DNA of 64,000 bases, taken from Pseudomonas sp. Irchel 3H7 (lineage in GTDB: Bacteria; Pseudomonadota; Gammaproteobacteria; Pseudomonadales; Pseudomonadaceae). The DNA lies in the NCBI RefSeq assembly GCF_900187605.1, contig NZ_FYEA01000001.1, forward strand, positions 434,001-498,000. The letters are read 5' to 3'. Positions 23,917 through 26,721 of the stretch are shown one piece after another. The position numbers were made by a program, and so were the translations under genes. How positions within the stretch are numbered: the first letter of the stretch is position 1; each line of letters starts with the position of its first letter. Under the pieces are notes generated by a model. That model was given only the letters and a program-made list of their open reading frames with translations. It did no database searches and was not told the origin of the DNA.

Positions 23917-23932
23917 GCTTTCCTCCAGGCAT

Positions 23933-23954
23933 AAAAAAACCGCCTCGAGGGCGG
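23933..23954 (-). terminator. Terminator between tail genes I and J
   Basis: On the minus strand CCGCC-CTCGA-GGCGG then seven T. It is within the late operon and nearly identical in sequence to the one at 17672. Confidence 0.7.
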
Positions 23955-23974
23955 TAGGTGTGCTGCTGTCCTGA

Positions 23975-24565
23975 TTACACTTTGTCTTCAGCCAGGATCG
24001 AGGCCGAGATGATCATCCCGCCCCACCGGCGCTCGCCGATGCAGATCGGTACCGGGTTGCCGCTTGCCGTGGTGTTCTTGGCGCTTCCGAAGGCGTAGGA
24101 CGGTGAGTTTTCTGGGGATGCGCTTTGCTTCAGGCCCTTCGCCTGAGGGCTGAGCATCTGTATCACACCACCAGCCACCAGCCCGGCACCCAACTGCACG
24201 GCCCAAGGCTGACCGAAGTACGAGCCGGCCACGACCAGAACTGCGCCAATGATCGTCTGAAGCAGGCCTGCTCGTTTGCTCCCGGAAATGACTGGGACGA
24301 TGCGAATCTCTTGGGTCCCGCCGAGACCGAAATCTTTTTCAGCTACGTTTTTCCGGTTTCTGAAAATCGCAAAACGCATCCCTTTGCGCTCAAGATCTTT
24401 AATAGCGCCTTCGAATCCTTCAATCGTGCACTTCAGCGCTTTGAATGCCTCGCCCACTGACTTGCTGCCGAGCTCTCGGCGATGAACGCGACCAAACAGC
24501 TTGATAAGCGGGCCTGAGAGAAGAATGGTTGTCATAGCTGGGTTGTTACTTGCCGTCGCTGCCAC
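23975..24565 (-). CDS. I: Tail assembly protein I
   Basis: 196 residues. The GTG start at 24565 has GGAG six bases upstream; the internal ATG at 24535 has none. Lambda I-like: N-terminal ubiquitin-like part (VGEAFKALKCTIEGFEGAIK), then a Gly/Ala hydrophobic segment (AGLLQTIIGAVLVVAGSYFG) and a C-terminal tail. It is required for tail tip assembly and is not in the virion in lambda. It is flanked by terminators on both sides. Confidence 0.88.
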   Translation of the reverse strand: MAATASNNPAMTTILLSGPLIKLFGRVHRRELGSKSVGEAFKALKCTIEGFEGAIKDLERKGMRFAIFRNRKNVAEKDFGLGGTQEIRIVPVISGSKRAGLLQTIIGAVLVVAGSYFGQPWAVQLGAGLVAGGVIQMLSPQAKGLKQSASPENSPSYAFGSAKNTTASGNPVPICIGERRWGGMIISASILAEDKV

Positions 24566-24581: not shown

Positions 24582-24602
24582 AAAAAAACCGCCCGTAGGC
24601 GG
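24582..24602 (-). terminator. Terminator downstream of the lipoprotein gene
   Basis: On the minus strand CCGCC-TACG-GGCGG then seven T. It ends the lipoprotein unit and lies just before tail gene I. Confidence 0.7.
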
Positions 24603-24607
24603 CTCTG

Positions 24608-25006
24608 TCATTGCATCGTGGGTGATAAGTCCATGCTCATTGATGAGTCGATGGATATCCTGAATTTCTTGGTGGCACCAGCCTTTATGTTGGCTTCCCG
24701 CTCTTTAAGGCCGCTGCCGCATGATGATGCGCCGACGATGTGCTCACCGGCGGAAACGTAGAACTTTGCAGTTTCACCAGAACCAATCTCGGCAGCTTTT
24801 CGCCCGTCGATGCTCACTGATGTATTGCAGCCGCCACCAACAAAGCCGGAATCACGGGTAACGATCAAGACAGCGTCACCGGAGGCTGGCTTCTGATATG
24901 CGAACAGGCGCGAGCTTGGCACGGGATCCGCCTTTCCTGACGGAACTGGCGTGGTTGCACAAGCAGTCAGCAACATTAGAGCGATAACGGTAGATATGAA
25001 TTTCAA
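24608..25006 (-). CDS. Lipoprotein moron inside the tail module
   Basis: 132 residues from a TTG at 25006 with AAGGAGAGAAC upstream; the longer GTG frame lacks such a site. The signal FISTVIALMLLTAC has lipobox LTAC. The mature domain is beta-rich with a Cys pair (GGGCNTSVSIDG, VGASSCGSG). It is inserted between tail genes K and I and followed by its own terminator. Lipoproteins placed here in other lambdoid phages can block superinfection, which is a guess for this one. Confidence 0.75.
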   Translation of the reverse strand: MKFISTVIALMLLTACATTPVPSGKADPVPSSRLFAYQKPASGDAVLIVTRDSGFVGGGCNTSVSIDGRKAAEIGSGETAKFYVSAGEHIVGASSCGSGLKEREANIKAGATKKFRISIDSSMSMDLSPTMQ

Positions 25007-25038
25007 AGTTCTCTCCTTGAGGCCCACCTATTCACGTA

Positions 25039-25932
25039 TCACGGAACAAAAGGGCTGATTATCTCGTCCGCTATGATAAATGGTTCCGAATACGATTTTT
25101 TGCCAATCGAAAAATAGGACGCTCTCCGAGTATCCGTATCGAGAAGCTTACCGCCCCTATTTGGCCAGGAAGGATAAATTCCATCTGGATCAGGCTTTCC
25201 AAAAACCGATGTTAGATACTTGGCTCCAGAATTGTAGCCCGCCTTGGTTCCAGGAATGACGACCGCGCTATAAAAGAAGCCATCAAAAAAGCACAGTGTG
25301 CTCTTTTGCATTTTTTCCGAGCCAAGAACGCCAGGCAAATTATCCCCTGCGTAGCAAACATCTAACCCCTCACCCTTTGCCTTTTGTAAAGGCGGCCCAA
25401 CATCTGGATATCTTTTACCAAGCTGATAGCCAAGCAGAGCCAGCGGTTTCCCTTCATCTATGGATAGATCAAGTGCGCCCGAATCAAATTTGTATTGGCG
25501 AGTACCTATTCCACTCACGTTCAATTCGACAAAAACCTGTTTAGCTCTGGCTACGGCGCCGGCGAAAGCCACAACCTGTGTCGGTATCAATTGCCGTCCA
25601 TCATCAGACGCAAAAAGCTCTTCTCGAACCTTGCCGTCGTCAAATTTTACACTTGCATTACAAAGCGATTCGCCTGGTTTAGGACAGCCTTTGACCTTTC
25701 CGTCTTCCAGATGCAAAACCACGCCAGGCTTTCCATCTTTTTTGTCCAGTACCATCAAGGTAGCGCTGGGGCCACCGCCATTCATAGGCTTTGCTGTTTG
25801 GCTGAAAGCCATCGTAACGCTTCCGCGCATCTCGTCTTTTACTTCTGACTTAACCCATTCGGCATTTACGAAAGGCGCGAACATCATTCCAGCCAATAAA
25901 GTTGCCGACAGCGAGCTTGCGTTGTTGCTCAT
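25039..25932 (-). CDS. Secreted hypothetical protein inside the tail module
   Basis: 297 residues with a signal peptide (LSATLLAGMMFAPFVNA, cut before EWVKSE). The periplasmic domain has three to four Cys and no recognised family. It is AT-richer than the tail genes, and precedes the lipoprotein gene by 32 bases on the same strand. The pair looks like a two-gene cargo unit of envelope proteins placed between K and I. Confidence 0.7.
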   Translation of the reverse strand: MSNNASSLSATLLAGMMFAPFVNAEWVKSEVKDEMRGSVTMAFSQTAKPMNGGGPSATLMVLDKKDGKPGVVLHLEDGKVKGCPKPGESLCNASVKFDDGKVREELFASDDGRQLIPTQVVAFAGAVARAKQVFVELNVSGIGTRQYKFDSGALDLSIDEGKPLALLGYQLGKRYPDVGPPLQKAKGEGLDVCYAGDNLPGVLGSEKMQKSTLCFFDGFFYSAVVIPGTKAGYNSGAKYLTSVFGKPDPDGIYPSWPNRGGKLLDTDTRRASYFSIGKKSYSEPFIIADEIISPFVP

Positions 25933-25965
25933 CTATGCCACTCCTGTGAAAAGGTTTATACCTTA

Positions 25966-26721
25966 TCACCGAGATCGACGGTGACGTAGCACCAGTCGCG
26001 CGCGGTCAAGCCACGGCCCGCCGAAGACAATGACCTCCGATGGCCTGCCGTATAGGTGGTGCAGCAGGAATGGCCCGGGGCCGAAAGTCGCTGCGTCCTC
26101 GCCGGGCAACGCCGGGTCGGGGCCGAGAAAGATCCCGGCGTGGTTCGGGAAAACCGTGCGCCCCACTTCCATCACGATCATGTCGCCGCGCTGCGGCTGG
26201 TCGACGCGGTAGAAGCCGGCGGCCTCGTAATTCGCCTCGTAAAGACTGGTGTTGTCTTTGCTCTCCCACCAGCCATCGGCACGCTTGAAAGCTTCGAACT
26301 CCAGCCCCCACTCGCGCTTGTACCAATCGGCGCACACCTGCCAGCAGTCCCAAGCCCCGTGCACAAATGGCCGTTTCAGCAGCGGCACCTCGCCGGTCGG
26401 CACAATGGTGCGCAGGTCTCCTTCCGGCCAGCTCAGGATATGCCAAGGCATTGCGGTCGCTTCGCACATGGCGAGGTCACGCGGTGACGGTCGGCTGGTT
26501 GCGTCCGGATGCGAATGAACCACGCCGATTACTTCGCCGACGTCTTCGGCCACTGCGTACTCCTCCGGATCGATTCGGAACTCTTCGTTCGGCACGGTCG
26601 AGACGTTGATGCAGGGGAAGTATCGTTGCTTGCGTCCTATCGCCAGCAGCAGCCCGCAGCACTCTTTCGGGTACTCGGCCGCCGCGTGCGCCTGGATCGC
26701 GTTCAGTATGTGCTTGCGCAT
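25966..26721 (-). CDS. K: Tail assembly protein K: JAMM peptidase plus NlpC/P60 domain
   Basis: 251 residues from the ATG at 26721, preceded by AAGGAGCTGATC. The N-terminal Mov34/JAMM domain has VVHSHPDATSRPSPRD (His-x-His ... Asp zinc motif). The C-terminal NlpC/P60 part has the Cys in HGAWDCWQVCADWY and His in FPNHAGIFLG. In lambda K has the same two-domain design and acts in tail tip assembly. It starts two bases from the end of gene L. Confidence 0.9.
   Translation of the reverse strand: MRKHILNAIQAHAAAEYPKECCGLLLAIGRKQRYFPCINVSTVPNEEFRIDPEEYAVAEDVGEVIGVVHSHPDATSRPSPRDLAMCEATAMPWHILSWPEGDLRTIVPTGEVPLLKRPFVHGAWDCWQVCADWYKREWGLEFEAFKRADGWWESKDNTSLYEANYEAAGFYRVDQPQRGDMIVMEVGRTVFPNHAGIFLGPDPALPGEDAATFGPGPFLLHHLYGRPSEVIVFGGPWLDRARLVLRHRRSR

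What the first reader, a model, noticed from the sequence alone, without database searches (positions are those of the whole stretch)
24608..25932. Two envelope cargo genes inside the tail tip module
A lipoprotein and a signal-peptide protein interrupt the K-I order that is contiguous in lambda. They are AT-richer and end in their own terminator, so they may alter the lysogen envelope or block phage DNA entry.
Basis: inference. Interest (0 to 1): 0.55.

Follow-up and report, generated by a model that had tools for sequence, protein, structure and literature searches.

The report
Phage lipoprotein paired with tail plug
Two exported proteins sit inside a Pseudomonas prophage's tail genes; one fills a slot that usually carries an interchangeable lipoprotein, which probably stops rival phages from infecting the cell and, in related phages, seems matched to the part of the tail plug thought to enter the bacterial membrane.

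Summary
Between tail genes K and I lie a 297-aa protein with a signal peptide and a lipoprotein (phrog_890), AT-richer than their neighbours and followed by a terminator. This is an ordinary moron position: in 38 of 46 same-genus tail loci the K-I gap holds cargo, ending in a lipoprotein just before I in 37 and a lipoprotein-like protein in one. A Cor-like role was already suggested in print for a homologue.

New here: (1) signal peptide and mature domain are exchanged separately, with the joint at or near the lipobox cysteine. (2) Among phrog_914-type lipoproteins the mature domain co-varies with the hydrophobic hairpin of tail protein I, not with I's flanks, J or K; in lambda this part of gpI may enter the outer membrane. 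(3) Lipoprotein-I pairs also occur in satellites and downstream of a repressor. Best reading: an exclusion lipoprotein aimed at the incoming gpI plug, confidence 0.35.

Against: no own promoter found; terminators are general in this operon; the window's own class shows the coupling weakly; 12 of 30 class A loci have no I nearby.

The parts
25966..26721 (-). tail gene K (JAB + NlpC/P60 peptidase), upstream neighbour; start at 26721 inferred, the listed ORF runs to 26931
   Evidence: Pfam Prok-JAB 2.5e-17, NLPC_P60 6.2e-7; phrog_30
25933..25965 (-). 33-bp leader between the K stop and the SP297 start; similar to the leader that precedes the lipoprotein directly in some other phages
25039..25932 (-). 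SP297: exported 297-aa protein; N-terminal domain related to a phage family of secreted proteins, C-terminal domain of unknown type
   Evidence: signal peptide by sequence; phrog_1848 E 0.0049; relatives
24608..25006 (-). lipoprotein LP (132 aa from TTG; the GTG at 25027 gives 139 aa), class A = phrog_890
   Evidence: phrog_890 2.3e-40; AF2 pLDDT 85, beta-sandwich
24962..25006 (-). LP signal-peptide coding segment, which differs from close relatives far more than the mature part does; Cys codon 24961-24959
   Evidence: nine relatives: mature 180 nt 87-92% identical, signal 45 nt 44-53%
24582..24603 (-). intrinsic terminator between LP and I
   Evidence: the same motif in relatives
23975..24565 (-). 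tail protein I (gpI, insertion/plug protein)
   Evidence: phrog_32 2.2e-62
24152..24265 (-). hydrophobic hairpin of I (residues 101-138); its counterpart co-varies with the lipoprotein mature domain in class B loci
   Evidence: lambda counterpart
23932..23955 (-). terminator between I and J, a general feature of these tail operons
   Evidence: 41 of 42 loci

Best explanation
The lipoprotein is the usual last member of a moron slot between K and I. It is exported, lipidated and, by its residues after the Cys (A, T, T), expected in the outer membrane (sorting rule recalled). I propose that its mature domain works as a superinfection-exclusion factor that recognises the hydrophobic hairpin of tail protein I when an incoming phage of a matching type lowers this plug into the outer membrane, and so stops channel opening and DNA entry. 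The mature domain is exchanged behind a leader and signal peptide that can stay the same, so new specificities can be plugged in. SP297 is a second exported cargo gene ahead of the lipoprotein, and in this lineage the lipoprotein also has a different leader and signal peptide; SP297 probably acts in the same periplasmic step, but nothing here shows how. Shown: position, export signals, slot conservation, exchange at the Cys codon between classes, co-variation with the hairpin in class B, pairing with I in some satellites. Inferred: localisation, binding to the hairpin, exclusion, transfer of the class B result to this class A protein, and when the genes are expressed.
For: (a) Of 38 cargo-bearing K-I gaps, 37 end in a lipobox protein directly before I (10 class A, 27 class B by HMM); the 38th, L062, has a signal-peptide protein with a non-canonical box (TTGC, by eye). 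(b) Class B mature-domain distances (23 loci) follow I only in alignment windows 81-160 (rho 0.556, 0.643, 0.554); the other six I windows give 0.19-0.31, and 52 windows of K and J have median 0.217, maximum 0.422. Partial Mantel LP~I C-terminal half given J N-terminus and K: 0.573, 0/999 permutations; N-terminal half 0.112 (54/999), although it lies between the lipoprotein gene and the hairpin. After collapsing near-identical loci, 22 representatives: hairpin 0.515 (0/1999), N-flank 0.089 (271), C-flank 0.128 (258). (c) L075 has an HK97-type head and a different I N-flank (35-37% identity), yet shares lipoprotein subtype (65-68%) and hairpin (83-85%) with L094/L096/L100/L108. (d) In lambda, trimeric gpI plugs the tail; its helices H1 and H2 are predicted to be transmembrane and are proposed to drop toward and insert into the outer membrane after LamB binding (passages of PMC11101478 and PMC10721106). 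(e) I plus class A lipoprotein in AH14b and five AH14b-like satellites (one, L268, matching AH14b at 100%), with no match to the window's other tail or head queries; class B lipoprotein + terminator + a second I gene co-oriented about 2.5 kb behind the AH14a repressor gene. (f) mEpimmI phages carry several lipoprotein types in the structural gene cluster, and the two tested exclude phages (passages of PMC11893012).
Against: The window's lipoprotein is class A, where the coupling is weak and not hairpin-specific: 9 loci LP~I 0.389 (36/999), N-half 0.334 and C-half 0.358 alike; 15 loci LP~hairpin 0.271 against 0.21 and 0.225 for the flanks, and -0.031 among pairs with diverged N-flanks. In 35 distinct viral class A loci the correlation is high along all of I (0.48-0.72) and in parts of J (up to 0.65), and the N-flank keeps more partial signal (0.464) than the hairpin (0.315). 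Pairing with I is not general: 12 of the 30 class A loci returned have no I within about 1.5 kb, the homologues in HK639 and SSU5 are not next to I, and of 14 I loci without K nearby 10 have no class A or B lipoprotein in the fetched stretch. Two cross-class pairs share a hairpin (L060/L073 0.82, L071/satellite L267 0.74; 2 of 435). Lipoprotein class is not associated with I, J or K. Mantel tests on related sequences overstate significance. No promoter, so lysogen expression is unproven. Three headed tail loci (L066, L069, L072) lack the lipoprotein at this place.
Confidence: 0.35

Rival explanations
1. Receptor-jamming exclusion as by T5 Llp or Cor: the lipoprotein binds the periplasmic side of the outer-membrane receptor and blocks adsorption; coupling with I is indirect.
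For: Llp is a periplasmic outer-membrane lipoprotein encoded next to the receptor-binding protein and jams FhuA (passages of PMC9586334); the tested mEpimmI lipoprotein types go with receptors; the AH14a authors likened a homologue to Cor.
Against: No co-variation with the J C-terminus: partial 0.054 (255/999) in class B, -0.05 (608/999) in class A. No similarity to Cor beyond the signal peptide. The receptor-binding part may lie in other fibre genes, so this is not excluded.
Confidence: 0.25
2. A late, lytic-phase helper: the pair is made only with the tail genes and stops re-infection of the dying cell or loss of progeny to debris, or buffers membrane effects of newly made I.
For: Co-directional, 33 bp behind K, no promoter found; terminators are general in the operon (41 of 42 at I-J).
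Against: A second lipoprotein-I pair lies downstream of the AH14a repressor gene in the same direction, and an SP297-domain relative is the third gene behind cI in phage D14O, places usually read in lysogens (recalled).
Confidence: 0.15
3. Lysogenic-conversion cargo that changes the host envelope for host benefit, unrelated to phage entry.
For: AT-rich, exported, variable cargo slot; class A relatives also occur away from I.
Against: A lipoprotein ends 37 of 38 occupied slots and pairs with I in some satellites, which points to a phage function.
Confidence: 0.1
4. The apparent matching of lipoprotein and I hairpin is shared ancestry or chance recombination, and the genes are neutral passengers.
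For: Small data set; the class A sets do not show hairpin specificity.
Against: In class B, I's N-terminal half, physically between them and about as variable, shows no such matching.
Confidence: 0.13

Closest known systems
AH14a_p83 lipoprotein of Pseudomonas phage phiAH14a (PMC4936722)
   Same: Same family (39% identity over the match), same K-I slot; likened to Cor exclusion proteins by its authors (passages).
   Different: No SP297 beside it; the passages seen do not link it with protein I and report no test of it.
mEp390 gp17 lipoprotein (E. coli phage, NC_019721)
   Same: Class A homologue exactly between K and I.
   Different: Single cargo gene, 34% identity, no SP297.
mEpimmI Lpp exclusion lipoproteins (PMC11893012)
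   Same: Several lipoprotein types in the structural gene cluster of temperate phages; exclusion shown by plasmid expression for two (passages).
   Different: Sequences not compared here; discussed with receptors rather than with I.
T5 Llp / Cor of HK022, N15, phi80
   Same: Small phage lipoproteins encoded near tail-tip genes, exclusion.
   Different: No detectable homology to Cor beyond the signal peptide; Llp sequence not compared; target is FhuA; predicted fold here is a larger beta-sandwich.
Ltp of Streptococcus phage TP-J34
   Same: Exclusion lipoprotein whose named target is a tail protein of the incoming phage, the tape measure protein (title of Bebeacua 2013 in a reference list).
   Different: Gram-positive host, different target; sequence not compared.
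HK97 morons gp15, gp22, gp23
   Same: Small extra genes between tail genes with terminators nearby; gp22 and gp23 lie at the I-J junction.
   Different: Different junctions and no sequence comparison made.

Membership tests
phage moron | extra gene between two genes that are adjacent in relatives | tested here: met
   K and I adjacent or overlapping in lambda and N15 and within 24-144 bp in 8 of 46 loci
phage moron | base composition differs from neighbours | tested here: met
   GC 0.479 and 0.529 against 0.572-0.638; GC3 0.45 and 0.556 against 0.645-0.788
phage moron | own terminator | tested here: met
   present; 37 of 38 cargo loci against 2 of 8 cargo-free by rule; but the I-J junction has one in 41 of 42
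phage moron | own promoter, lysogen expression | tested here: inconclusive
   no sigma-70-like site found, no synonymous constraint in the K 3' end; no RNA data
phrog_890 lipoprotein | profile match over most of the protein | tested here: met
   E 2.3e-40, residues 11-137 of 139
Pfam DUF2846 | curated cut-off of 34.3 bits | tested here: not met
   22.7 bits
Cor exclusion lipoproteins | sequence homology of the mature domain | tested here: not met
   profile comparison with HK022 and N15 Cor aligns only the signal peptide
Cor exclusion lipoproteins | excludes superinfecting phages | not testable with these tools
   needs plating tests
Ltp-type exclusion lipoprotein | sequence homology and tape-measure target | not tested
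   no comparison made
phrog_1848 (SP297 N-domain) | profile match | tested here: inconclusive
   E 0.0049 for SP297; its relative in L121 3.4e-10

The most novel reading that the evidence does not exclude
Pseudomonas lambda-like phages and some of their satellites carry a modular specificity system: an outer-membrane lipoprotein with swappable mature domains, each cognate to a type of gpI membrane hairpin, which blocks incoming phages at the DNA-channel step whatever receptor they use. gpI and the lipoprotein would then form an attack-and-immunity pair inside the tail module, hitch-hiked by satellites.
Probability: 0.27. Interest if true: 0.85.

Novelty: new variant of a known kind. Interest (0 to 1): 0.58.

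Why it matters
It would give a target and a specificity rule to a group of uncharacterised phage lipoproteins, test the idea that the gpI hairpin enters the host membrane, and explain why a satellite without other recognisable tail genes keeps gene I next to a lipoprotein gene. If wrong, the locus is still a well-delimited moron hotspot with a clear exchange joint at the lipobox cysteine.

Tried and rejected
Own promoter: none found. A palindrome in the SP297 leader looked like an operator, but it is absent from several leaders of the same type that precede the lipoprotein directly, so I dropped it. Matching of lipoprotein with the J tip: null. Kinship with Cor: signal peptide only. Classes A and B align only in the signal peptide. 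SP297: no match in the phage collection at E 0.01, no relative found by the pattern scan of genome contigs, no Pfam or NCBIfam family at E 1, no PADLOC family at E 0.1, no PDB relative by sequence at E 1; its AF2 model is poor (mean pLDDT 50, residues 157-297 under 50) and the fold search on it gave nothing at E 0.001 or below. Lipoprotein: one PDB sequence match, at E 0.31, taken as chance. Structural matches (PepT1 domain Z 9.0, AlgF 8.5, T6SS Lip 7.3, TssJ1 6.5; best viral match E 1.2e-5, a DUF4352 protein) suggest a common beta-sandwich and no function. 'Tailocins lack the lipoprotein': 4 of 8 cargo-free loci show no head genes within the 20 kb fetched, 3 have at least one and one has only the tail tube gene, against head genes in 12 of 12 cargo loci tested (12 of the 38); the four headless loci look alike and may be one event, so this is weak. 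Class A versus class B is not linked to I, J or K. Hairpin specificity did not replicate in the viral class A set. The mEp021 lipoprotein could not be compared: the stretch fetched ends before it.

They weaken the pairing of lipoprotein and I, so I lowered the best explanation from 0.40 to 0.35 and the novel case from 0.30 to 0.27, raised the passenger rival from 0.10 to 0.13, and set interest from 0.60 to 0.58.

Papers were read only as passages found by search terms; others only as listings. That no one has linked such a lipoprotein to gpI rests on searches of the held library only.

Full report
What is there. The window is a stretch of a 6.49 Mb genome with a lambda-like prophage whose late genes run on the minus strand. 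Terminase, DUF4055 (portal-like), capsid and tail-tube genes are recognisable, and the tail-tip genes are H, M, L, K, I, J. Between K (stop ends at 25966) and I (start 24565) lie SP297 (25932-25039) and a lipoprotein. The lipoprotein gene probably starts at TTG 25006 behind AAGGAGAG; most homologues align from about that codon. Both genes are AT-richer than their neighbours.

Ordinary side. The K-I gap is a cargo slot. I fetched 60 of the 63 best-scoring I places found in 199 same-genus genomes; the bait was the window's own I, so the sample leans toward its relatives. K was found upstream in 46; the gap is at least 433 bp in 38 and at most 144 bp in 8. In 37 of the 38 the last gene before I is a lipobox protein: 10 of the window's class (A, phrog_890) and 27 of another class (B; the five tested match phrog_914, unknown function); the 38th, L062, has a signal-peptide protein with a non-canonical box. 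A terminator lies within 100 nt before I in 37 of 38 by rule (the 38th, L052, has an imperfect stem) and in 2 of 8 cargo-free loci; shuffles give 2 of 920. In viral contigs, 49 class A loci have K in reach: the lipoprotein follows K at 29-45 bp in 15, at 76 bp in one, and at 643-2616 bp in 33 (some contigs are near-duplicates). Enterobacterial phages have the slot too: mEp390 with class A, Serratia phage OS31 with class B. HK97's record names morons and terminators at the I-J junction. The AH14a authors likened the homologue in that phage to Cor in 2016 (PMC4936722, passages).

SP297. It is single-copy in its genome, found in 3 of 199 same-genus genomes including its own, and not matched in the phage collection. 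Five viral contigs hold it complete with both neighbours at 87-99% identity, and two more carry a 40% relative in the same K-lipoprotein gap. Its N-terminal domain belongs to a wider set of secreted phage proteins that lie between M and L in five other lambda-like tail loci (L121, L122, L123, L125, L127) and, in the D3-like phage D14O, as the third gene behind cI. This mobility among tail junctions, and one place in an immunity region, suits a moron acting in the envelope; the domain's function is unknown.

Exchange at the cysteine. The leader and signal-peptide DNA can be identical between loci whose mature domains are unrelated. L102 (A) and L109 (B) share all 70 nt before the Cys codon and then diverge at once; 47 of 918 cross-class pairs (61 sequences) have at least 90% identity in the 45 nt before the Cys. 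In reverse, the window's mature domain is 87-92% identical over 180 nt to nine relatives whose signal segment matches at only 44-53%; here the first 30 nt from the Cys are 67-80% identical where shown, so the joint is at or just after the lipobox. I read this as SP297 arriving with a new leader and signal peptide for the lipoprotein. The leader now in front of SP297 resembles the one that precedes the lipoprotein directly in L158, L161 and L168.

Pairing with I. Of the 30 class A loci returned, five have the order I-lipoprotein, and all five lie in AH14b-like satellites with primase and helicase genes and no match to the window's other tail or head queries; one of them, L268, matches AH14b at 100% and is probably the same element. 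AH14a has a second class B lipoprotein, terminator and I gene, co-oriented about 2.5 kb behind its repressor gene; the record annotates that lipoprotein only from a later start, as hypothetical protein p33. But pairing is not the rule for the whole family: 12 of those 30 class A loci have no I within about 1.5 kb, HK639 and SSU5 carry it elsewhere, and 10 of the 14 I loci without K have no lipoprotein in the fetched stretch.

Co-variation. I asked what the mature domain varies with. In class B (23 loci) the match is to the C-terminal half of I (partial 0.573, 0/999), not to its N-terminal half (0.112, 54/999), J (-0.009) or K (-0.029). Windows place it at the hydrophobic hairpin, alignment positions 81-160, peak 0.643, against a control maximum of 0.422 in 52 K and J windows. 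With the AH14a and OS31 pairs added and near-identical loci collapsed (22 representatives), the result stands: 0.515 (0/1999) against 0.089 and 0.128 for the flanks; among 308 pairs with diverged N-flanks, the 10 with a shared hairpin have mean lipoprotein identity 0.598, the other 298 have 0.315. Because the unmatched N-terminal half lies between the lipoprotein gene and the hairpin, simple linkage does not explain it. In lambda, gpI is a virion protein, a trimeric plug whose helices H1 and H2 are predicted to be transmembrane and are proposed to sink toward and insert into the outer membrane on receptor binding (PMC11101478, passages); residues 137-152 are noted as hydrophobic and possibly membrane-contacting (PMC10721106, passages). 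An exported lipoprotein and a cytoplasmically assembled tail protein would meet mainly when a new virion delivers the plug. Hence the proposal: a plug-directed exclusion lipoprotein.

Limits. The window's lipoprotein is class A, for which the effect is weak (15 loci, 0.271), not hairpin-specific (9 loci, N-half 0.334, C-half 0.358) or not separable from common descent (35 viral loci). Two cross-class pairs share a hairpin but not the lipoprotein class. Permutation tests on related sequences are optimistic. Covariation with the J tip, which receptor jamming might predict, was not seen, but other fibres may carry the receptor-binding part. Expression is open: no promoter, no constraint at synonymous sites of the K 3' end, and late transcripts must pass the I-J terminator anyway. 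Nothing shows what SP297 does.

Verdict. The finding as written is a good call on an ordinary moron position. The slot's usual lipoprotein, its cysteine-joint exchange and its matching with the gpI hairpin in class B are, as far as the searches of the held library show, not described, and they make a testable new variant of superinfection exclusion.

Noticed in passing
L265 10997-12061; L266, L267, L268, L269, L270: AH14b and five AH14b-like satellites (L268 matches AH14b at 100%) carry tail gene I followed by a class A lipoprotein, with no other tail or head query matched.
   Followed up: partly
L264 2956-3942 (phiAH14a, reverse complement): Second lipoprotein (class B, annotated from a later start as hypothetical p33) + terminator + second I gene downstream of the repressor gene of AH14a.
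   Followed up: partly
window 23932-23955 and the I-J junction of L050-L109: A terminator lies between I and J in 41 of 42 loci; 11 of the 42 junctions are 206-707 bp long, a second cargo slot.
   Followed up: partly
L121, L122, L123, L125, L127: SP297-type secreted domain proteins lie between M and L in other lambda-like tail operons.
   Followed up: partly
L061, L063, L064, L067: Tail clusters with no head gene matched in the 20 kb fetched and without K-I cargo; one search shows two I-like hits in tandem at the same places in G104, G170, G110 and G127.
   Followed up: partly
L087: Satellite-like locus with a class B lipoprotein about 540 bp behind I instead of class A, suggesting that satellites swap the lipoprotein too.
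   Followed up: no
L076, L078, L079, L091, L098, L099, L103: I loci without K and without a detected lipoprotein have a homologue of satellite gene p19 directly before I; what these elements are was not worked out.
   Followed up: no
L008, L011, L017, L022, L023, L025, L026, L027, L029, L031, L032, L033: Class A lipoprotein relatives with no I match within about 1.5 kb; their surroundings were not examined.
   Followed up: no
K-I gaps of L050-L109: Upstream of the lipoprotein the gap often holds varied cargo on both strands, largely small ORFs that were not classified; Medea1 carries annotated regulators there.
   Followed up: no
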